Positions 2,253 to 12,917 of a DNA stretch of 64,000 nucleotides are shown piece by piece. Where the stretch lies: positions 1-64,000 of the forward strand of contig NZ_PZJT01000018.1 in NCBI RefSeq assembly GCF_003206135.1, written 5' to 3'. This DNA is from Salinicola salarius. GTDB lineage: Bacteria; Pseudomonadota; Gammaproteobacteria; Pseudomonadales; Halomonadaceae. The position numbers and the translations under genes are program-made. Numbering within the stretch: position 1 is the stretch's first letter; every line of letters starts with the position of its first letter. The notes beneath the pieces were generated by a model. It had not been told where the DNA came from. It made no database searches and saw only the letters and a program-made list of their open reading frames with translations.

Positions 2253-4712
2253 CTACTGTGCTGATGATGCGTCAGGCCCTGTAGCGTCGCGCGGCACCAG
2301 CAGACGTATACGGGGGTCGGCGATTTCGATTCCCAGCTTGCGAAAGCGCTCCAGAATGCGTCGATTGGTTTCACGTTGAACTCCCCAGCGCCCTTTATCG
2401 ACACACTGTATCCGGCCGACCAGTGTCACCATCGAGCCATCCACCGCGTTGACGCCCCACACTTCGAGGTCATTGAGAATCAGATCCTTGAATGCCGGAT
2501 CACTGCGCAGGCCGGCACCGATATCCTTCAGCTCGGTAATCGCTCGTTCAATATCCGTGTCGTAACTGACGCTGATGCTGACCTCCGCATTACCGATTCC
2601 GCGGTTGGTGTTGTTGACCGTCGATACCGAGCTGAAGGGAACGATATGCAGCGAACCGTCGCCGGCTCTCAGTCGCACGGTGCGAATCGACAGATACTCG
2701 ACCACCCCTGATATGCCAGCTACCGTCACCCAGTCACCGACCTGCATCGCGTTTTCCATCAGCAAGAAGATACCGGTGATGAAGTCTTGCACCAGCTTCT
2801 GCGAACCAAAGCCTATCGCAACGCCGATAATGCTGGCACCGGCCAGCAGCGGTGTCGTATTAATCCCGAGCTCGTTCAACGCTGTCAGGCCGACAATCAA
2901 CACGATAAGAATGAGCAGGCAGGTTCGCAGCATCGGCAACAGCGTACGCAAGCGCGCCACTCGCATGCGTTCACCCTGCTTCTCCCAGAGCGCGAGCCGC
3001 CGCTCGGCTGCGGCGTTTACCGTCTGCCAGACAACGGTCGCGACGATGACGGCAACCAGAATAGTCAAAGCCGCCGAGACTAAACTGCGCCCGATGGTCC
3101 CGGGCGCAAACCAGCCTATCGCGTTCAGCCCCCAGGCCTGACAGAGTAGAACAACCGTACAGGCCGTGATGACCAGCGAAATCAGGCGACGGATCAATGG
3201 ATGGTAGCGTTCGATCAGACGACCGAAAATACCGGTTTCGGGGCTCTCATACGTACCGTTGTCCTGCGTCTCGGCAGAAGCAGCAGTGGGAAATAGCCGC
3301 TCTAGAGCGCCTAGCGCGAGGATCGCCACCACGCGAGCGGCGATAATGATGACGCCCGAAACGCTGATGAAATGAATCAGCCTGGGGAAGCCATTCTCGA
3401 CGCCAAGCGCCCAGACGACCCAGGCACCCATCACCAAGACAGCGGCAAAAAAAGCCCAGACCTGCGCCAGCCAGTTGCGCATTGAAGCAAGCGGCCCGTG
3501 TGCCTCCGCCGGTGCTGCAATGGCTTCGCCGACCGGATGCCGGAGCTTGAAAATCAGTATCACGAGGAAGATGTGCACGAACAACGAAGCGATCTTGATG
3601 ATCGCCAGGCTTCCCGCTGGGCTGGCACCCAGGGCTCGTACGGCCCCTGCAAGGGCAATGCCGAACGTGGAAAGCACGACGAAGCGTCGTATCCAGACGT
3701 GCAGAACCATCGAAAGATCGTGGTTCACCTTCAGCAGGCTTAGGCCACAGCTTGCGGGAGAAACCAGCAGACGCACTACAGCCATGGTGACGCGGGTGAT
3801 GACATAGGCGTTGACGAATTCACTCGTCACGGCATGGATGCGTTCGTTACCGCCTTCTAGCCAATGCATGACAAGGCCCGACGCGCAGAAAAACAGCACC
3901 AACGGCAACAGGTCGAGGATCAGTACACCGACGGCAAAAGGCAGATGTCGCAATGTGCTCCAGTTTTCGCTTGGTCTCGGCGCTGCGCCGTTACGATCAT
4001 GCCGGGCGCTCTCCGCCGCGATACCGTCATTTCCGGTTGCCTCGTTAGCGCTGGCAACGGCTTGCTGTGCCGCCGCCGGTCCGCCACTCGCCGCGTTTGC
4101 TGGATCGACCGGGACGGCTTCTATCCGATCGATGCCGTTTCGATGGGTCTGCACCAGCGCCACACTCCCCTCCGCTGGGCGAGTGCCTCCAGCCGTTACG
4201 GTCTCCATGAAGGCACGTTGTTCTGATAGTTGCGTCGCGTTCCGCTCTTCGTCCTGCTTCCTTTCGAATGCCTGGCGTTGCGTTTCGCCGTTGCGGTTCT
4301 GTTCCTTCCTGGCATTCGTTTCGGCTTCCTCGGCGTGCTCGATCAACGCGCGGCGGGGCCGGCTCAGTACACGACGCAGCCACCACTCGAGAACAAGACC
4401 GATGATGAATACTGCAGCAAGACCGATGAGCGCCTGCATCAGCAACGTTCGGCCCTCGTCGCTGCTGAAGAGCGTCCCGAACCAGTCAGGTAACTCGAGG
4501 GCCGCCTGTTTGATTTGACCGAACTGATCGCCGAGGCCGCCGGCCCATCTGCCGACCTGACTCAGCGCCTGGGTAATCAGCCCGTTCGCTTCCAACGGAA
4601 CGAGTGCGCTATCCAAGGAGTCCGGCGATGCCGGTTCCTGTGCCACGGAAATCGGGGCCAGCGCGAAGGCAAGCAGGCATGCGAGAAGTGCTTGAAGAAT
4701 CCGTTTACGCAT
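2253..4712 (-). CDS. Large MscS-family mechanosensitive channel (YbiO-like)
   Basis: 819 residues. The chosen start gives a clean signal peptide (RILQALLACLLAFALAP, then SVAQ) and drops an upstream extension without hydrophobic character; the ribosome binding site is weak. After a periplasmic segment there are about 11 hydrophobic helices. The last is the MscS pore helix (LLAGASIIGVAIGFGSQKLVQDF), followed by the beta domain (VGDWVTVAGISGVVEYLSIRTV and IVPFSSVSTVNN) and a cytoplasmic alpha/beta domain. An extended polar linker rich in Glu, Arg and Gln lies between the first and second membrane helices. Such large MscS homologues open on hypo-osmotic shock to release solutes, a useful role in a halophile. 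E. coli YbiO is about 740 residues, so this one is somewhat longer. Single gene, no operon partners. Confidence 0.88.
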   Translation of the reverse strand: MRKRILQALLACLLAFALAPISVAQEPASPDSLDSALVPLEANGLITQALSQVGRWAGGLGDQFGQIKQAALELPDWFGTLFSSDEGRTLLMQALIGLAAVFIIGLVLEWWLRRVLSRPRRALIEHAEEAETNARKEQNRNGETQRQAFERKQDEERNATQLSEQRAFMETVTAGGTRPAEGSVALVQTHRNGIDRIEAVPVDPANAASGGPAAAQQAVASANEATGNDGIAAESARHDRNGAAPRPSENWSTLRHLPFAVGVLILDLLPLVLFFCASGLVMHWLEGGNERIHAVTSEFVNAYVITRVTMAVVRLLVSPASCGLSLLKVNHDLSMVLHVWIRRFVVLSTFGIALAGAVRALGASPAGSLAIIKIASLFVHIFLVILIFKLRHPVGEAIAAPAEAHGPLASMRNWLAQVWAFFAAVLVMGAWVVWALGVENGFPRLIHFISVSGVIIIAARVVAILALGALERLFPTAASAETQDNGTYESPETGIFGRLIERYHPLIRRLISLVITACTVVLLCQAWGLNAIGWFAPGTIGRSLVSAALTILVAVIVATVVWQTVNAAAERRLALWEKQGERMRVARLRTLLPMLRTCLLILIVLIVGLTALNELGINTTPLLAGASIIGVAIGFGSQKLVQDFITGIFLLMENAMQVGDWVTVAGISGVVEYLSIRTVRLRAGDGSLHIVPFSSVSTVNNTNRGIGNAEVSISVSYDTDIERAITELKDIGAGLRSDPAFKDLILNDLEVWGVNAVDGSMVTLVGRIQCVDKGRWGVQRETNRRILERFRKLGIEIADPRIRLLVPRDATGPDASSAQ

Positions 4713-5096
4713 TTCATTAATCGGCAACCGAGGAAGCCGGCCTGTGCAGGGAGCCATTGGTGTTACAGCTGATAAATCAAGGTAGTGTAAAGCTTCAGCT
4801 TGTCCAACTGCTCCGCTGGGCTAAAGAAGCGAAGTGCTTGCCTTATTAACGAAGAGATAAGAGTACGGAAAGATCCGCTTAGGAAAACACTGCACAAATG
4901 TCTGCACAGGCGAATCGCTACGTTGCGCGGTACGGGCGCGCCAGCCCCGTCGAGATTCGACTAACCCCCGTGTTATGTCTTGCCTTCTCCGTTCCGGTCG
5001 TCTTGCGCTTCATCCCGTTCGCCTATGTGTTCAGCAGCAGCTCGATGAGCGCTCCCTGGGCTGAAACGTTGCGAAAGAAAGAGAATGACAGCTACG
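4713..5096. other. Intergenic region upstream of the MscS gene
   Basis: About 380 bases containing the probable promoter of the channel gene (AT-rich stretch at 4760-4890). An open frame runs through on the plus strand into the next gene, but it has no ribosome binding site and is antisense to the small secreted-protein gene, so I do not count it. Confidence 0.4.
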
Positions 5097-5118
5097 AAAA
5101 AAGGGCCCGAAGGCCCTT
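5097..5118 (-). terminator. Rho-independent terminator of the first small secreted-protein gene
   Basis: Read on the minus strand: AAGGGCC, a TTCG tetraloop, GGCCCTT, then more T residues. It lies 22 bases after the stop codon of the gene at 5141-5515. The perfect stem, UUCG loop and U-tract make this a strong intrinsic terminator. Confidence 0.9.
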
Positions 5119-5140: not shown

Positions 5141-5515
5141 TTAGCTGTTGCTGGCGAAGCTCATTTCCACGTTGCCGCGGTCGTTGCTGCCATTCTGGGT
5201 AGCGTGCTGCAGCGCTTGGGCGGCGGCGTCGCTCTGGCCTTCACCCACCAGCGGGTTATGGCTGGTCGAGATGTTGGTGGCGAGTTGCGTGGCGTCGGCG
5301 ACGTTCTCCAATGCCTGGTCCGCTGCGGCGCTATGCCCGCCGATGACGGTATCGACACTGTAGCGAGTCGGCAGTGCGTGGTACTGCGCGGTCTGTTCGA
5401 TATTGAGCGCTTCGCTCTGCTGATCAAAGTGACGTTGTTCGACAGCACTGTTGGCCTGAGCGGCGGCGGGCAGAGCAATGGCGATTGCGATGGCTGCGAG
5501 AATGCGGGTTTTCAT
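5141..5515 (-). CDS. Small secreted protein, paralogue A
   Basis: 124 residues with ATG preceded by GGAGGC. Residues 1-21 are a signal peptide (MKTRILAAIAIAIALPAAAQA) and cleavage would leave about 103 residues. The mature part starts NSAVEQRHFDQQSEALNIEQ, contains the motif TQYHALPTRYS-like at about 42-53, and then a hydrophilic region rich in Ala, Gln, Asn and Asp. No cysteine or membrane helix follows, so it should be a free periplasmic or exported protein. I do not recognise the family. A paralogue lies 237 bases upstream on the same strand and is almost identical through the first 55 or so residues, then diverges. Each copy has its own terminator, so they are separate transcription units. 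Confidence 0.78.
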   Translation of the reverse strand: MKTRILAAIAIAIALPAAAQANSAVEQRHFDQQSEALNIEQTAQYHALPTRYSVDTVIGGHSAAADQALENVADATQLATNISTSHNPLVGEGQSDAAAQALQHATQNGSNDRGNVEMSFASNS

Positions 5516-5689
5516 GGTGTTGCCTCCAATGATCATCTGTTGTGGCGTGGGGCCCTTGGCCTCAACCTGTGATGTCATTATCGGGTGATTTCCGTTAGAT
5601 GACTAATCAAGTGGCGTGAAATCAGCTATCGATAAGAATGATCTTGGCGGATAAGTCTGGATATAAATCAGGGAGGCAGTAGATAAAAC

Positions 5690-5714
5690 TAAAAAGGGAG
5701 CCTGTGGCTCCCTT
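5690..5714 (-). terminator. Rho-independent terminator of the second small secreted-protein gene
   Basis: Read on the minus strand: AAGGGAGCC, loop ACA, GGCTCCCTT, then TTT. The nine-base perfect stem begins about 38 bases after the stop codon of the gene at 5753-6124. Confidence 0.88.
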
Positions 5715-5752
5715 GGATACGCTAGCGGCTAGCACTTTGCCGAAGGCAAGAC

Positions 5753-6124
5753 TTACAGGGTGGCGAAGTTCACTTCGACGTTGCCCTTGTCATTGCTGAC
5801 GGTCTGGGTAGCGTTCTGCAGCGCCTGGCCGGCAGCAGCGCTCTGACCTTCGCCGATCAGGCTGTTGTTGGACGGCTGCACGCTGGTAGTCAGTTGAGTG
5901 GATTCGGCCACGTTCTTCAGGGCCTGATCGGCAGCGGTGCTGTGGCCGCCATCGACGGTGTCGGCGCTGTAGCGAGTCGGCAGTGCGTGGTACTGCGCGG
6001 TCTGTTCGATATTGAGCGCTTCGCTCTGCTGATCAAAGTGACGTTGTTCGACGGCACTGTTGGCCTGGGCGGCGGCGGGCAGAGCAATGGCGATTGCGAT
6101 GGCTGCGAGAATGCGAGTTTTCAT
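5753..6124 (-). CDS. Small secreted protein, paralogue B
   Basis: 123 residues, ATG preceded by GGAGG. The signal peptide is identical to that of the neighbouring paralogue and the mature N-terminus (NSAVEQRHFDQQSEALNIEQ) is also the same. The second half differs: TVDGGHSTAADQALKNVAESTQLTTS against TVIGGHSAAADQALENVADATQLATN, ending in NVEVNFATL against NVEMSFASNS. The shared pattern of residues in the divergent half (GGHSxAADQAL, GEGQSxAAxQALQxATQ, NxxGNVEx-F) shows both are under selection. No known domain is recognised. Expression is monocistronic, with a terminator close behind. Confidence 0.78.
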   Translation of the reverse strand: MKTRILAAIAIAIALPAAAQANSAVEQRHFDQQSEALNIEQTAQYHALPTRYSADTVDGGHSTAADQALKNVAESTQLTTSVQPSNNSLIGEGQSAAAGQALQNATQTVSNDKGNVEVNFATL

Positions 6125-6432
6125 GGCGTTACCTCCAAAATGTCTTTTTGATTGATGGCCTCTCGGCCTCAACCTGTGGCGACATTATGGGAGCCGACTC
6201 TTTAGTCTGCTAATCACGCGTAGTGAATTCGACTATCGACAGGATTAATACTAAGGTCGAATCCATGGATTGGCTCTGGAGTGTAAACCTTTTCCCTCCG
6301 GTTGTGTGAATTCAGCCAAGCCGGCTCCGAGTTTCCCATTCCGGCCAGGGCCTTCGAACGGTTTTGCTCGATACCGGCGCGCCCGCCATAATGGCAGCAT
6401 CTCATCCATCGCTTGCCAGCAGAGAACCCCTT
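6125..6432. other. Divergent intergenic region
   Basis: About 308 bases separate the minus-strand secreted-protein gene from the plus-strand S1-domain gene. The AT-rich part at 6190-6260 probably holds promoters for one or both. It contains a 12-base palindrome, AATCCATGGATT (6260-6271), with no assigned role. Confidence 0.4.
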
Positions 6433-7132: not shown

Positions 7133-7945
7133 TCACATCCGATAGGTGCGATACCAGCCGAGCCCGGCTTCCGTTTCGCCGCGGGGCTTGTATTCGCAGC
7201 CCAGCCAGCCGTCGTAGCCGGCCTGGTCGAGCTGGGCGAATAGCCACGGGTAGTTGACCTCACCGGTATCCGGTTCGTGCCGTTCGGGCACACCGGCGAT
7301 CTGGATATGGCCTACGCCATCGCGGTAGCGCTCGTAGGTCTTCCAGATATCTCCATCCATGATCTGGGTATGGTAGAAATCCATCTGCACCTTGACGTTG
7401 GGCTCGTTCAGCTCGGCGAGGACCGCATGCCCTTCGGCCTGATGATTGAGGAAGTAGCCCGGCATGTCGCGAGTATTGATCGGCTCGATCAGCAACGTCA
7501 GATCGTGTTCGGCGAGCTTTCGCGCGGCGAAGCGAAGATTCTCAAGATAAATCTGATGGTTATCGGAAAATGTTTCACGGGAAACATTGTCCGGGACAGT
7601 CTCGGATGTCGGTTCTTCTACCAGTCCGGCCATGGCGTGCAGGCGCGGGCAGTTCAACGCCTTGGCGTAGCGAATCGCGGTATCGACGCTGTCGCGGAAC
7701 TCCGCTTCACGACCGGGAAGGGCGGCCAGGCCGCGCTCGCCGGCAGCCCAGTCGCCAGGCGGCAGGTTGAACAGCACCTGTTCGAGCCCGTGGCGCTTCA
7801 GCTCGGCGGCGATCGCTTCGGGTTCGAAGTCATACGGGAACAGGAACTCGACTCCGGTGAAACCATTCGCGGCGGCTCTGGCAAAGCGCTCCATGAACGG
7901 GACTTCGTTGAACATCATGCTGAGATTGGCGGCGAAACGCGGCAT
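7133..7945 (-). CDS. otnI: 2-oxo-tetronate isomerase OtnI (hydroxypyruvate isomerase family)
   Basis: 270 residues, ATG preceded by AGGA. It is a xylose-isomerase-like TIM barrel with the family's N-terminal PRFAANLSMMFNEVPFMERF, a glutamate in LLIEPINTRDMPGYFL and a second in GCEYKP that bind metal and substrate. In the C4 acid-sugar pathway this enzyme interconverts 2-oxo-tetronate and 3-oxo-tetronate so that products of erythronate and threonate oxidation reach the kinase OtnK. It is the last gene of a five-gene minus-strand operon (regulator-ltnD-otnK-otnC-otnI), 51 bases after otnC. The close homologue hydroxypyruvate isomerase (Hyi) is separated mainly by context, which here clearly favours OtnI. 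Confidence 0.88.
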   Translation of the reverse strand: MPRFAANLSMMFNEVPFMERFARAAANGFTGVEFLFPYDFEPEAIAAELKRHGLEQVLFNLPPGDWAAGERGLAALPGREAEFRDSVDTAIRYAKALNCPRLHAMAGLVEEPTSETVPDNVSRETFSDNHQIYLENLRFAARKLAEHDLTLLIEPINTRDMPGYFLNHQAEGHAVLAELNEPNVKVQMDFYHTQIMDGDIWKTYERYRDGVGHIQIAGVPERHEPDTGEVNYPWLFAQLDQAGYDGWLGCEYKPRGETEAGLGWYRTYRM

Positions 7946-7996
7946 GGCCTGATTCCTCGGTGATCCGGTTGAAGGTATGGACAGACGAATGCGCGC

Positions 7997-8662
7997 TTAC
8001 CACTGGGCGCCGAAGGCGTCACGCAGCTCGTCGATCTCCTTCTCGTTCAGCGTGCGCACGTCATGGTGGCGCAGCAGCAGATAGAGCTTGGCGGTCTCCT
8101 CCAGCTCTTCGATGGCGTTGCGTGCGGCTTCCAGCGTCTTGCCCGTCACCACCGGGCCGTGATTGGCGAGCAGCACGGCGGCATGGTCCGCAGCATAGTT
8201 GCGCACCGCCTCGCCCAGCGCCGCATCGCCGGGGCGGTAGTAGGGCACCAGCGGCAGGCGGCCGACCCGCATCACGAAGTAGGGCGTGATCGGCGGCAGG
8301 CAGGAGTGTTCGTCGAGCCCGTTGAGACAGGACACCGCCGCCGAATGGGTGGCGTGAAGATGGATGATGCCGCCGGTATCCGGGCGCTGCTCGTAGAAGG
8401 CCCGGTGCAGGAACGACTCCTTGGTCGGCGGCTTGCCGGCGAGCAGGTTGCCGTCCCAGTCGAGCTTGGAAATTTCCGCCGGGTCCAGTGCGCCGAGGCT
8501 GGCGTTGGTCGGCGTCATCAGCCAGCCATCGTCGAGCTTGGCGCTGATATTGCCGGAGGTGCCCGGCGCCATGCCCAGGTTGCGGAAGGAGCGGCCGATC
8601 TCGGCGATCTCTTCGCGCAGGCGGCTTTCGGTCGAGGAGGTCGAAGTGTGAATCGCGGTCAT
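7997..8662 (-). CDS. otnC: 3-oxo-tetronate 4-phosphate decarboxylase OtnC
   Basis: 221 residues. It belongs to the class II aldolase/adducin family: a TSGNISAKLDDGWLMTPT segment near residue 33, then the zinc-binding GIIHLHATHSAAV and the LLANHGPVVTGKTL segment. In this pathway it splits 3-oxo-tetronate 4-phosphate into dihydroxyacetone phosphate and CO2. The start at 8662 overlaps the otnK stop codon by four bases (ATGA), which implies translational coupling. Upstream in-frame ATGs would extend into otnK and do not match the family. Class II aldolases such as fuculose-phosphate aldolase are the alternative, but the DUF1537 kinase next door settles the assignment. Confidence 0.9.
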   Translation of the reverse strand: MTAIHTSTSSTESRLREEIAEIGRSFRNLGMAPGTSGNISAKLDDGWLMTPTNASLGALDPAEISKLDWDGNLLAGKPPTKESFLHRAFYEQRPDTGGIIHLHATHSAAVSCLNGLDEHSCLPPITPYFVMRVGRLPLVPYYRPGDAALGEAVRNYAADHAAVLLANHGPVVTGKTLEAARNAIEELEETAKLYLLLRHHDVRTLNEKEIDELRDAFGAQW

Positions 8663-9984
8663 GGCATCAGGTTCCAGGCTTTGGTCATGAAATCGGTGGC
8701 GCCGAAGTTGCCGGACTTGAGCGCCAATGCCAGCGACTCTTCGGTCCCCAGCGTGGTCGTCCACGGCACGCCGGGGTCGATGCTCTCGCCGATCCGCAGC
8801 CCCTGAACGCCGAGCGCGCTAACCACGGCGCCGGAGGTCTCGCCACCGGCGACCAGCAGGCGCCGCACGCCGAGGCGGCCGACCAGCTCGCTGGCGATTT
8901 CGGCCAACGCCCGCTCGACCAGTTCGCCGGCTTCCTGCACGCCGAGCCGCTGTTGGGCCTGACGCACCTCCTCCGGGGTGGCGCTGGCGTAGATCAGCAC
9001 CGGGCCGCCGTCGTTGTCGGCGTGCGCCTGGAAATGGGCTTCGGCGCTGGCGAGCGCCGCGTCGACGACACTTGCGTAGTCATCGTGCAGCGCCTGAGCA
9101 TCGAGGTGAAAACTCGGCATGTGCTGTTTGGCATGGTCGATCTGGGCCAGCGTGGCCCGCGAGCAGCTGCCGCTCAATACCGCCTCGCGACCGGCGATCG
9201 GCTCGAGGCGGGCGGCGTCCTGCCGGTGATCGAGTCGATCGGCGACATTGGCCGGCAACCCCAGCGCCAGGCCGGAACCCGCCGTCACCAATGGAAGATC
9301 GCGGCAGGCGCGAGCCAGCACGAACAGATCCTCGTTATCGATGGCGTCGCAGATCGCGATACCGATACCGTCGGCTTTCAACGCCTCGATGCGCGTGGTC
9401 ACCGCGGCGTCGCCCTGACGCAGCGTGGCGTAGTCGATCAGCCCGATCTCCCGCGTCGTCTGCGCGCCGAGCACGCGAACCAGGTTGGCATCGGTCATTG
9501 GCGTCAGCGGGTGATCCTGCATGCCGCTCTCGTTGAGCAGGACGCCGTTGGCGAACAGATAACCGTTGAACACGCTGCGGCGGTTGGCCGGCAGCGCCGG
9601 GCAGGCGACGGTAAAGTCGGTACCCAGGGCGTCCATCAGCGCCTCGGTGACCGGGCCGATATTGCCGGCCGGTGTCGAATCGAAGGTGGAGCAATATTTG
9701 AAATAGAACTGCTCGCAGCCCTGTTCCCGCAGCCAGTCGAGCGCCTGGATCGACTGCTTGATGGCCTCGCTGGCAGGGATGGTGCGCGATTTCAGCGCCA
9801 CCACCACGGCGTCCACGCCCGCCTCCAGCGGTGTGTCGGGAATCCCGATGGTCTGCAGCGTGCGCATGCCGGCGCTGACCAGCTGGCTGGCGAGATCGGT
9901 GGCACCGGTGAAGTCGTCGGCGATGCAGCCGAGGATCGGTCTGGCGCGGGTCCGGTCGATGGAGTTCGAAGCGGGAGTCGACAT
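8659..9984 (-). CDS. otnK: 3-oxo-tetronate kinase OtnK (DUF1537 family)
   Basis: 441 residues with the two-domain DUF1537 layout. The N-terminal substrate-binding half begins GCIADDFTGATDLASQL (about 19-35) and includes FKYCSTFDSTPAGNIGPV. The C-terminal nucleotide-binding half ends with LLVAGGETSGAVVSALGV and a DPGVPWTT segment. The family phosphorylates 3-oxo-tetronate at the 4 position with ATP, feeding OtnC. It starts three bases after ltnD and overlaps otnC by four, in the middle of a tightly packed operon. Confidence 0.93.
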   Translation of the reverse strand: MSTPASNSIDRTRARPILGCIADDFTGATDLASQLVSAGMRTLQTIGIPDTPLEAGVDAVVVALKSRTIPASEAIKQSIQALDWLREQGCEQFYFKYCSTFDSTPAGNIGPVTEALMDALGTDFTVACPALPANRRSVFNGYLFANGVLLNESGMQDHPLTPMTDANLVRVLGAQTTREIGLIDYATLRQGDAAVTTRIEALKADGIGIAICDAIDNEDLFVLARACRDLPLVTAGSGLALGLPANVADRLDHRQDAARLEPIAGREAVLSGSCSRATLAQIDHAKQHMPSFHLDAQALHDDYASVVDAALASAEAHFQAHADNDGGPVLIYASATPEEVRQAQQRLGVQEAGELVERALAEIASELVGRLGVRRLLVAGGETSGAVVSALGVQGLRIGESIDPGVPWTTTLGTEESLALALKSGNFGATDFMTKAWNLMP

Positions 9985-9987
9985 GGT

Positions 9988-10914
9988 TCAGCCCCTTCCA
10001 TTAGCGTCATTGGCGGCCGTGCCGGGGAGCGTGAGTCCGGGGTAGACCTTGATTACCGCCGAATCGTCCTCGCGGCCCAGCCCCTGGGCGGACGCCAGGG
10101 TGAACTGGCTGAGCGCCTGCGCGGTGAGCGGCAGCGGGAATTTGTCGCGGTGGGCGGTGTCGTGGACGATGCCGAGATCCTTGACGAAGATGTCCACCGC
10201 CGAATGCGGCGTGTAATCACCGGCCAGGATGTGGGGCACGCGGTTCTCGAACATCCACGAGTTGCCGGCGCTCTGGGTGATCACTTCATACAGGGTCTGC
10301 GGATCGCATCCGCCGCGAATGCCGTAGGCCATCGCCTCGGCAGCGGCGGCGATATGCACTCCAGCCAGCAGCTGATTGACGAGCTTGACCTGCGAACCCT
10401 GCCCCAGTTCGTCTCCCAGCCGGAAGACCTTGGCGGCGAGGGCGTCGAGCACGTCGCCGGCGCGCTCGAACAGCGCCGCGGGGCCGGAGGCCATGATCGT
10501 CAGCTGGCCCGCGGCCGCCTTGACCGAGCCGCCCGAGATCGGCGCATCGAGCAGATGAACGTCGTGAGCGGCGAGATCGGCTCCCAGTGACTGCACGGCG
10601 TCTGGCGCGCAGGTCGCGCAGGAGATCACCATACTGCCCGGCTTCAATCCCGGCAGCAGGCCGTTATCGCCGAACAGCACAGCCCGGGTCTGTTCGGCGT
10701 TGACCACTACGGTCAACACGATCTCGACCTCGGCAGCCATCTCCGCCGCCGTTGCCACGGCATGGCCGCCGGCCTCGGCAAAGCTCGCTCGCGCTTCCTC
10801 GCGCAGATCGCAGCCCCAGGTCTCGAAGCCGGCGCGCACCAGCGACGTGGCCATGCCCATCCCCATCGAGCCCAGCCCGATGACCCCGACGCGGGGTCGT
10901 TGTGTCGTACTCAT
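9988..10914 (-). CDS. ltnD: L-threonate dehydrogenase LtnD
   Basis: 308 residues, beta-hydroxyacid dehydrogenase family. A Rossmann motif GVIGLGSMGMGMA lies at residues 10-22, the substrate-binding DAPISGGSVKAAAG at about 122-135, and the catalytic lysine in GSQVKLVNQLLAG. The family oxidises L-threonate to 2-oxo-tetronate with NAD. The ATG overlaps the stop codon of the upstream regulator (ATGA), so both are on one transcript. Related enzymes (tartronate semialdehyde reductase GarR/GlxR) are similar, but the otnK-otnC-otnI neighbours point to threonate. Confidence 0.9.
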   Translation of the reverse strand: MSTTQRPRVGVIGLGSMGMGMATSLVRAGFETWGCDLREEARASFAEAGGHAVATAAEMAAEVEIVLTVVVNAEQTRAVLFGDNGLLPGLKPGSMVISCATCAPDAVQSLGADLAAHDVHLLDAPISGGSVKAAAGQLTIMASGPAALFERAGDVLDALAAKVFRLGDELGQGSQVKLVNQLLAGVHIAAAAEAMAYGIRGGCDPQTLYEVITQSAGNSWMFENRVPHILAGDYTPHSAVDIFVKDLGIVHDTAHRDKFPLPLTAQALSQFTLASAQGLGREDDSAVIKVYPGLTLPGTAANDANGRG

Positions 10915-11708
10915 CGTGAGTCCTCTTTCGTCTGTTCCGTCGATGCCGACGGCGATCCACGCTGCGCTTCCACGCGCTCGAGCAGATCGGTGGGCGCCTG
11001 GCGCAGGCGTGTTTCGGCGTGTTCCAGATGAATGGCGGCGGCCCGGGCGGCGGCATCGGCATCGCCTGCGGCAATGGCGTCGAGCATGGCCTGATGCTCC
11101 GCGACCACCTGCTGCATGAAGGTCTCGCGCAGCGATTCGTTGGTCCGCGTCACGCGGATCGCCTGGTGCAGAAAGCGGTTGTAGAAGTCGAGCACGGCGG
11201 TGAAGTGGGTATTGTCGGCCGCTTCGGCGATGGCGCGGTGAAAGGCGAGATCCTGATCGACGCCGGACAGCCCCGCCTCGACCGCTTCATCGATATCCAC
11301 CATGGCGTTGCGAATCCGCCGTAGCTGGGACGGTGTGCGCCGTTCGGCGGCGAGCCGTGCGGCTTCCACCTCCAGCGGCCGGCGCAGCTCCAGCACCTCG
11401 ACCACCGACTGCAGGCCGGGATCGGGAATCGCCAGCCGTAGCGATACCGTCGGTGCTTCGGCGACGAAACTGCCGCTGCCCCGCCGCGAAGTCACCAGGC
11501 CGCCGTTGCGCAGCATCGAGATCGCCTCGCGCACCACGGAGCGGCTGATGCCGAAGCGCTCGCCCAGTTCCGCCTCGGTTGGCAGACGCGCTCCGCGACC
11601 CCATTCGCCGGCCTGTATCGCGTCGCTCAAGCGCTGGGCGACCTGTTCGGAAAGCTGCGGGCCGCGCGACGGCTGCCTCGTGTCTTCTTTCAATGCGGTA
11701 TTCCTCAT
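10911..11708 (-). CDS. GntR-family (FadR subfamily) transcriptional regulator
   Basis: 265 residues from the ATG at 11708; an in-frame upstream ATG gives a basic tail not seen in the family. An N-terminal winged helix (SEQVAQRLSDAIQAGEWGRGARLPTEAELGERFGISRSVVREAISML) is followed by an all-helical FCD ligand-binding domain from about residue 95, with the metal/effector-binding histidines in DLAFHRAIAEAADN and HLEHAETR. It heads the minus-strand operon and faces denD across 222 bases containing a perfect TTGTCAGACAA palindrome. It most likely represses both arms until an acid-sugar intermediate binds; that is inferred from context. Confidence 0.9.
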   Translation of the reverse strand: MRNTALKEDTRQPSRGPQLSEQVAQRLSDAIQAGEWGRGARLPTEAELGERFGISRSVVREAISMLRNGGLVTSRRGSGSFVAEAPTVSLRLAIPDPGLQSVVEVLELRRPLEVEAARLAAERRTPSQLRRIRNAMVDIDEAVEAGLSGVDQDLAFHRAIAEAADNTHFTAVLDFYNRFLHQAIRVTRTNESLRETFMQQVVAEHQAMLDAIAAGDADAAARAAAIHLEHAETRLRQAPTDLLERVEAQRGSPSASTEQTKEDSR

Positions 11709-11799
11709 GCATTCGTCGTAGTCGCGACGTCTTCGATGCTGCCATGACGGCGTGCGACGGCGTTCTCCGACCAATGGCGATATTGCTCGTCGGCTGAAT

Positions 11800-11810
11800 T
11801 TGTCAGACAA
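11800..11810. promoter_or_regulatory. Candidate operator for the FadR-type regulator
   Basis: TTGTCAGACAA is a perfect 5-1-5 palindrome and matches the TNGTNNNACNA pattern typical of FadR-subfamily operators. It lies in the divergent region between the regulator and denD, about 90 bases upstream of the regulator start and 120 upstream of denD, so one bound dimer could control both directions. Confidence 0.7.
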
Positions 11811-11930
11811 GATGTTAAATCGCAAACGTCAGCGCAATTCGCCTTTCGTCAATCCAGTGCCATTCGAACCAGTGCTGTTCGATCCAGCGCCATGCGATGG
11901 ACGAAGGCGAGGCCAGAGGAGAGAAATGCC

Positions 11931-12917
11931 ATGCATGTGATCGTGACCGGAGGCGCCGGCTTTCTCGGCGCGAGACTGATCCAGCGGTTGCTGTCGGATG
12001 AAACCGTGATCGAAGGCCAGGCCGTCACGCGGGTGACGTCGATCGATCTGGCACCGTGTCAGGTGGTCGACGACCGTGTCGAATCGCTCACTGGCGATAT
12101 CGCTGATGCCGATTTCATAGAGTCTGGGCTGGTCCAGCAAGCGCTGGCCGACGATACCGGTGCCGTCTGCCATCTGGCGGCGGTGGTCAGCTCGCAGGCC
12201 GAGGCCGATTTCGATCTGGGCATGCGGGTCAATCTGGATGCCACGCGAACGCTGCTGGAGGCGTGTCGGGCACGTTCGAAGCGGCTGCGATTCCTGTTCG
12301 CCAGCTCGCTGGCGGTGTTCGGGCCGGGGCTCTCTCAAGGGCGCTCCCAACCGGTACCGGAAGCGATCGGCCCTCGGCCGCGCTCTTCCTACGGCGCGCA
12401 GAAGGCGATGGGAGAGCTGTTGGTCAACGACTACAGCCGGCGCGGCTTCGTCGATGGCCGCGTCTGCCGCCTGCCGACCATCGTGGTGCGGCCGGGCAAA
12501 CCCAATCAGGCGGCCTCGTCGTTCGCCAGCTCGATCATTCGCGAACCGCTCTCCGGCATCGAGGCGGTCTGCCCGGTGGCAGGGGAGCTGCCGCTGTGGC
12601 TCTCCTCGCCACGGGCGGTCGTCGCCAACCTGGTGCATGCGCTGACGCTGTCCGGCGAGCCGCTCGGAGACTGGCGCACGCTCAACCTGCCCGGCATCAC
12701 GGTGACGGTGAACGAGATGCTCGATGCGCTGGAGCGCGTAGCCGGCCCGTCGGCCCGCCAGCTGGTGCGATTCGAACCCGATGCCGCCATCGACGCCATC
12801 GTCGCCAGCTGGCCGGGCGGGCTGGATGCCGCACGGCCGCTGGCATTGGGGTTCCAGGCCGATGCCGATTTCGACGCCATCATTCACGCCTACCGGGAGG
12901 ACGAACTCACGAGCTGA
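11931..12917 (+). CDS. denD: D-erythronate dehydrogenase DenD (SDR/epimerase family)
   Basis: 328 residues. ATG at 11931 has AGAGGAGAG at 11915-11923 and gives the Rossmann motif VIVTGGAGFLGARL right at the N-terminus; an ATG 39 bases upstream does not. The extended-SDR active site YGAQKAMGE (Tyr and Lys) is at about 155, after the conserved serines in FASSLAVFG. In characterised clusters, DenD-like proteins beside otnK oxidise D-erythronate to 2-oxo-tetronate. Here it starts the plus-strand arm, divergent from the ltnD-otn operon, and is followed by the permease gene. A nucleotide-sugar epimerase role is unlikely given the neighbours. Confidence 0.87.
   Translation: MHVIVTGGAGFLGARLIQRLLSDETVIEGQAVTRVTSIDLAPCQVVDDRVESLTGDIADADFIESGLVQQALADDTGAVCHLAAVVSSQAEADFDLGMRVNLDATRTLLEACRARSKRLRFLFASSLAVFGPGLSQGRSQPVPEAIGPRPRSSYGAQKAMGELLVNDYSRRGFVDGRVCRLPTIVVRPGKPNQAASSFASSIIREPLSGIEAVCPVAGELPLWLSSPRAVVANLVHALTLSGEPLGDWRTLNLPGITVTVNEMLDALERVAGPSARQLVRFEPDAAIDAIVASWPGGLDAARPLALGFQADADFDAIIHAYREDELTS

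What the first reader, a model, noticed from the sequence alone, without database searches (positions are those of the whole stretch)
5141..6124. Tandem secreted paralogues with near-identical first halves and separate terminators
160 bases spanning the start and signal peptide are almost identical, while the second halves share only spaced motifs. Each gene has a tight intrinsic terminator. The pattern suggests ongoing gene conversion of the N-terminal half with selection for variation in the C-terminal half, as seen in recognition or surface-binding proteins. The family appears undescribed.
Basis: seen in the sequence. Interest (0 to 1): 0.55.

Follow-up and report, generated by a model that had tools for sequence, protein, structure and literature searches.

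The report
Salinicola exported-protein genes with patchy conversion
Two neighbouring bacterial genes for small exported proteins share an almost identical first half because one copy has been partly overwritten by the other (gene conversion), a well-known process acting here on a protein family for which no name or known job was found.

Summary
Two tandem minus-strand genes (5141-5515 and 5753-6124) encode 124 and 123 aa proteins with signal-peptide-like starts. They differ at 5 of 162 nt in the first half and 58 of 207 aligned nt after it, and each has its own terminator-like hairpin. Gene conversion of the N half is strongly supported: synonymous difference is 0.10 versus 0.53, the N halves are nearest each other while the C halves are nearest the sister genome's orthologues, and AU tests reject a shared tree. 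Selection for C-terminal variation is not supported (window-pair dN/dS about 0.25). Conversion is lineage-specific: some species keep different N halves, and one pair is identical at its C-terminal end as well.

The genes belong to an unnamed Halomonadaceae family: 54 close copies in 18 of 18 genomes of the genus (Salinicola, inferred). Scattered copies share a promoter and leader that was found at no other gene at the search's sensitivity. Mature proteins are acidic, Cys- and Trp-free, with two G[HQ]S motifs; AlphaFold gives no confident fold. Best guess at the job: an abundant exported stress or envelope protein. A distant subfamily meets the hydrophilin composition rule; the window proteins do not. 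Function is inferred, not shown.

The parts
5753..6124 (-). Gene A (upstream copy), 123 aa protein with signal-peptide-like start ending AQA, then a mature part of about 102 aa
   Evidence: copies at the same locus in the 17 other genus genomes
5141..5515 (-). Gene B (downstream copy), 124 aa protein of the same family
5963..6124 (-). Homogenised tract in gene A: codons 1-54, 5 differences of 162 nt from gene B
5354..5515 (-). Homogenised tract in gene B: codons 1-54
5694..5714 (-). Terminator-like hairpin with T run after gene A
5101..5118 (-). Terminator-like hairpin with T run after gene B
6184..6213 (-). Promoter-like site of gene A (TTAGCA, 18 nt, CATAAT); dyad TTAGCAGACTAA (6202-6213) overlaps the -35
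   Evidence: 2 sites found, 0.8 +/- 0.9 expected; TTAG-N4-CTAA in 42 of 49 aligned upstream regions
5577..5605 (-). Promoter-like site of gene B (TAGTCA, 17 nt, GATAAT); dyad TTAGTCATCTAA at 5595-5606
6233..6237 (-). Upstream GATAG element of gene A, 22 bp upstream of GATTAG; GATA invariant in 49 of 49 aligned upstream regions, spacing kept in 48 of 49
5626..5630 (-). Upstream GATAG element of gene B, same 22 bp spacing
6150..6174 (-). Predicted hairpin near the expected mRNA 5' end of gene A
   Evidence: a hairpin of 6 or more pairs is predicted in 47 of 49 leaders; covariation support nearly absent
5544..5567 (-). Predicted hairpin near the expected mRNA 5' end of gene B
6132..6136 (-). GGAGG Shine-Dalgarno-like site of gene A
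   Evidence: sequence; GGAGG in 41 and GGAG in 49 of 49 leaders
5523..5527 (-). GGAGG Shine-Dalgarno-like site of gene B
   Evidence: sequence

Best explanation
This is a tandem pair from an unnamed, expanding family of small exported acidic proteins. Each gene looks like a separate transcription unit: conserved promoter, predicted 5' leader hairpin, strong Shine-Dalgarno site, terminator. Recombination between the close tandem copies has copied about 160 bp of one N-terminal half onto the other in this lineage, while the already diverged C-terminal halves kept their own histories under purifying selection (shown by sequence comparison; the RecA-type route and the direction of copying are not shown). 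The proteins are probably made in quantity and act in the periplasm or outside the cell as poorly folded, hydrophilic stress or envelope protectants (inferred, weak).
For: Conversion: window pair pS 0.10 and pN 0.008 in codons 1-54 versus 0.53 and 0.20 after. In mature codons 22-42 pS is 0.09 between the paralogues but 0.64 and 0.56 to the sister-genome orthologues. Nearest neighbours switch between halves. AU tests reject the C tree on N data (p 1e-4) and the N tree on C data (p 9e-37). A clean 162-nt stretch with permutation P below 0.01 was found in 6 of 9 within-genome pairs tested and in 0 of 3 orthologue control pairs. Cassette: a sequence model of promoter plus leader gave 55 matches in 18 of 18 genus genomes, each just upstream of a copy of this family, one of them the degenerate G010 copy (one search compared by coordinates). 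Composition: 53 of 53 mature proteins lack Cys and Trp, mean pI 4.7. No confident fold: mean pLDDT 50.3 with 66 sequences. Expression hint: codon index of gene A 0.676 and gene B 0.630, above 36 and 34 of 37 window ORFs of 200 aa or more, with six ribosomal proteins as reference.
Against: No expression, location or phenotype data. The codon control is rough: its 37 ORFs are stop-to-stop, chosen by length, and five score below 0.3 and may be false; the third copy scores 0.602. The leader hairpin has almost no covariation support: RNAalifold predicts 0 consensus pairs. Low AlphaFold confidence can mean a lack of sequence signal rather than disorder. Hydrophilin composition is met by 5 of 5 members of a distant subfamily but by 0 of 53 close members. 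No conserved neighbour points to stress: an S1-domain gene is beside the locus in 18 of 18 genomes and an OtnI-like sugar-acid gene in 15 of 18 fetched stretches (names by eye).
Confidence: 0.6

Rival explanations
1. No conversion: the N half is merely under stronger purifying selection, including at the DNA level.
For: pN in the N half is often low, and the signal-peptide and codon 43-54 segments have somewhat lower pS across the family (0.38-0.52 versus 0.55-0.67). The locus-2 pairs in G003 and G017 have pN 0.02 and 0.00 but pS 0.38 and 0.61 in codons 22-42, which fits constraint rather than conversion for those pairs.
Against: In the window pair pS in codons 22-42 is 0.09 while orthologues differ at 0.64 and 0.56. 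Constraint alone does not make paralogues closer than orthologues; topologies conflict.
Confidence: 0.04
2. Recognition or surface-binding proteins with a constant N half and a diversifying C half.
For: The C half differs between paralogues. The middle segment of the locus-2 pairs has raised dN/dS (0.44 and 0.60), and the short C-terminal segment of the G000/G001 copy-2 orthologues has 0.75 on few changes (pS 0.05, pN 0.04).
Against: All those values are below 1. C halves of the G000/G001 orthologues are well kept (pN 0.032 and 0.037 over codons 55-end). G003 has an identical C-terminal end between paralogues. No match to any binding family over cut-off. No site-level test was run, so a few selected sites are not excluded.
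Confidence: 0.07
3. Subunits of an extracellular amyloid or matrix, working like curli or Fap.
For: Small exported proteins rich in Ala, Gln, Ser, Gly, Thr; no Cys or Trp; Lys 0.4%. Two short G[HQ]S motifs per protein. The likeness to curli composition is recalled.
Against: No curlin or Fap Pfam match up to E 1 for the three close paralogues scanned; only two motifs; the low-confidence models show helices, not strands. Neighbourhoods were not searched for secretion or nucleation genes.
Confidence: 0.1

Closest known systems
Concerted evolution of tandem duplicates by gene conversion
   Same: Paralogues more alike than orthologues over a tract, with the tract differing between lineages
   Different: Covers only part of a very short gene; in the window pair promoters and leaders stay distinct while the N half is homogenised
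Hydrophilins (composition class: glycine over 6% and hydrophilicity index over 1; definition seen in passages of PMC7448490)
   Same: A distant subfamily with a copy in this genome (G000:C2) meets both limits, 5 of 5
   Different: The window genes and the other close members fail: 0 of 53; the window pair has 5.8-5.9% Gly and GRAVY about -0.6
Curli/Fap-type amyloid subunits (recalled)
   Same: Composition only
   Different: No repeat-family match

Membership tests
Gene conversion between paralogues | Tract where paralogues are closer than orthologues at synonymous sites | tested here: met
   pS 0.09 versus 0.64 and 0.56 in codons 22-42
Gene conversion between paralogues | Conflicting trees for the two gene parts | tested here: met
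   AU p 1e-4 and 9e-37, 20 copies of the main locus
Diversifying-selection surface protein | dN/dS above 1 in the variable part | tested here: not met
   0.25 for the window pair over codons 55-end; 0.11-0.60 for codons 43-92 and 93-end of three paralogue pairs; no site-level test was run
Hydrophilins | Glycine over 6% and hydrophilicity index over 1 | tested here: not met
   0 of 53 close members; 5 of 5 of the distant MRKNLI subfamily meet it. Hydrophilicity was taken as minus GRAVY of the mature protein, cut at an assumed signal-peptide site.
Hydrophilins | Protects enzymes or cells under water loss | not testable with these tools
   needs protein
Curli/Fap amyloid | Curlin-type or Fap repeats | tested here: not met
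   no such Pfam match up to E 1 in three close paralogues
Any curated family | Match above curated cut-off | tested here: not met
   Pfam (best DUF4148, 16.8 bits against a cut-off of 27, on the signal peptide); NCBIfam; PHROGs has no curated cut-off and gave no E below 0.06; no PDB sequence match

The most novel reading that the evidence does not exclude
A Halomonadaceae-restricted family of exported, largely disordered stress proteins that ranges from true hydrophilin composition to Ala/Gln-rich forms, is driven by a dedicated conserved promoter with a two-turn-spaced GATAG/TTAG..CTAA operator and a 5' mRNA hairpin, and is amplified and kept uniform by partial gene conversion, so that salt-adapted cells fill the periplasm or their surroundings with it.
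Probability: 0.25. Interest if true: 0.5.

Novelty: new member of a known kind. Interest (0 to 1): 0.3.

Why it matters
The gene-conversion pattern is textbook, but the family has no name in the libraries searched, is present in each of the 18 genomes of its genus that were searched, and carries a well conserved promoter and leader seen only at its own genes. That makes a small, testable regulon and a candidate abundant exported protein of salt-loving bacteria.

Tried and rejected
Structure: two AlphaFold jobs (23 and 66 sequences) gave mean pLDDT 50.6 and 50.3, so no fold search was run. RNAalifold on the promoter-leader alignment found no consensus pairs; a regex check of 15 leaders showed a U-A to C-G swap with both sides changed in only two, so the hairpin is reported as predicted, not proven. 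Rfam: one match, below its cut-off and outside the genes and their leaders. Plasmids and phages: no match for gene A's protein. An order-wide sample gave 3 of 293 genomes, all in the same bacterial family. Weak matches in other genera mostly cover the signal peptide and one motif, so distant membership is uncertain. Locus-2 pairs (G003, G017) first looked like a second case of N-half conversion; their pS in codons 22-42 (0.38, 0.61) says constraint instead, although their promoter and signal-peptide DNA are close.

Papers: searches showed listings and starts of abstracts; nothing listed named this family. One search listed hydrophilin papers. Passages only were seen of PMC7448490 and PMC5518125 (it speaks of conserved hypothetical proteins in general). 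No paper was read whole.

Rows dropped: L060 (its sequence runs into unread bases) from protein counts; a false ORF in L039; the degenerate G010 second copy from alignments; four long-leader copies (L044, L045, L046, L048) and one duplicate (L060) from the leader alignment, so 49 of 54 leaders were used.

Full report
What is there. Two minus-strand genes lie in tandem: A at 5753-6124 (123 aa) and B at 5141-5515 (124 aa). Both begin with a signal-peptide-like stretch ending AQA (judged by eye; no signal-peptide program was run). Codon-aligned, they differ at 5 of 162 nt in codons 1-54 and 58 of 207 nt beyond (0 of 5000 permutations matched). Terminator-like hairpins follow each gene at 5694-5714 and 5101-5118.

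Which organism and how widespread. With one protein as query, 18 of 38 genomes matched, all in the own genus and own genome included. With a broad profile, 72 of 275 genomes of the bacterial family matched, in 9 of 24 genera; the 18 of the own genus were strong, most others weak. In a sample of the order, 3 of 293 genomes matched, all in the same bacterial family. Plasmid and phage collections gave nothing. There are 54 close copies without inner stops in the 18 genomes, 1 to 5 per genome, one of them (G016:C9) running into unread bases, plus distant subfamilies.

The locus. An S1-domain (CvfB-like, by eye) gene sits beside the pair's locus in 18 of 18 genomes. Eight genomes have one copy there, eight have two, one has three (G017), and one (G010) has one intact and one degenerate copy.

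Gene conversion. Window pair: pS 0.102 and pN 0.008 in codons 1-54; 0.534 and 0.202 after. For the N half each window copy's nearest relative is the other window copy (0.031); for the C half it is the orthologue in sister genome G001 (0.068, 0.052). In codons 22-42 pS is 0.09 between paralogues and 0.64 and 0.56 between orthologues. Trees from the two halves of 20 main-locus copies reject each other (AU p 1e-4 and 9e-37). Of 9 within-genome pairs tested for a clean 162-nt stretch, 6 had P below 0.01 (G000, G001, G011, G002, G017 copies 2 and 3, G003), G008 had 0.019, G006 0.078 and G007 0.71; 3 orthologue control pairs had 0.99, 0.27 and 0.09. Two further G017 pairs were not tested this way. 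G008 and G006 keep a different second-copy N half, while G002 and G011 carry the common one, which looks like conversion caught between close relatives. In G003 the C-terminal ends are identical as well. Two G005 copies about 106 kb apart are near-identical including flanks. The promoters and leaders of the window pair were not homogenised.

Selection. The window pair's C-half dN/dS is 0.25. Regional ratios of mean dN to mean dS over pairs with dS 0.1-1.0 are 0.17 to 0.52; dN exceeded dS in 69 of 2936 pair-by-region comparisons (0 of 1066, 54 of 444, 6 of 759, 9 of 667), 54 of them in mature codons 22-42, which is not the C half. The highest C-half values were 0.60 (G017 locus-2 pair, codons 43-92) and 0.75 (G000/G001 copy 2, codons 93-end, few changes). 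So there is no support for diversifying selection in the C half, but site models were not run.

A shared expression cassette. Dispersed copies share an upstream block: GATA in 49 of 49 and its 22-bp spacing to the next GATT-like element in 48 of 49, a TTAG-N4-CTAA dyad at the -35 in 42 of 49, CATAAT in 30 of 49 (variants in most others), and GGAG in 49 of 49. A sequence model of the block gave 3 matches in the own genome, all at family genes, and 55 matches in 18 of 18 genus genomes, all upstream of family copies by coordinate comparison. That search scored at most 150 first-look candidates per genome, so weak sites elsewhere could be missed; and duplicates may simply have inherited the block. 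A hairpin of 6 or more pairs is predicted in 47 of 49 leaders (mean z -2.3 against base shuffles), but covariation is nearly absent. The dyad could bind a regulator, which is not identified.

The protein. Over 53 close members the mature part is 98-103 aa, mean pI 4.7, with no Cys or Trp and 0.4% Lys. At least two G[HQY]S motifs occur in 66 of 66 members, distant ones of the genus included; 72 of 10600 shuffled mature sequences of close members did so. AlphaFold gives no confident fold with 23 or 66 sequences. No Pfam or NCBIfam match reached its cut-off, PHROGs gave nothing below E 0.06, and PDB sequences gave no match. A distant subfamily, with a copy at G000:C2, meets the hydrophilin composition limits (5 of 5); close members do not (0 of 53) (definition from passages of PMC7448490). 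Codon indices of genes A and B are above 36 and 34 of 37 large window ORFs, with a rough control.

Verdict. The pattern is real and is ordinary concerted evolution in a tandem pair. The family is unnamed as far as these searches go. The most likely job, an abundant exported hydrophilic protein for salt or envelope stress, is an inference from composition, lack of a confident fold, promoter conservation and codon use.

Noticed in passing
window 2253-4757 (-): 834 aa membrane protein whose C-terminal part looks like an MscS-type mechanosensitive channel (by eye); it lies downstream of the pair.
   Followed up: no
window 7133-12917: Gene cluster resembling four-carbon sugar-acid (threonate/erythronate) catabolism: OtnI-, OtnC-, OtnK-, LtnD-, GntR- and DenD-like ORFs, named by eye.
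   Followed up: no
L076:2017-2337 (G000:C2): Distant, very acidic subfamily member (MRKNLI start) that meets the hydrophilin composition limits.
   Followed up: partly
L050:2072-2443 (G000:C40): Third close paralogue in the own genome, facing away from a SIMPL-like ORF, with an OtsA-like (trehalose phosphate synthase) ORF nearby (names by eye).
   Followed up: partly
L063:2014-2376 and L070:2009-2371: Two copies about 106 kb apart in G005 near-identical over gene and flanks, a recent duplication or long conversion.
   Followed up: partly
L039:2546-2791: Degenerate second copy in G010, still with a weak promoter-leader match.
   Followed up: no
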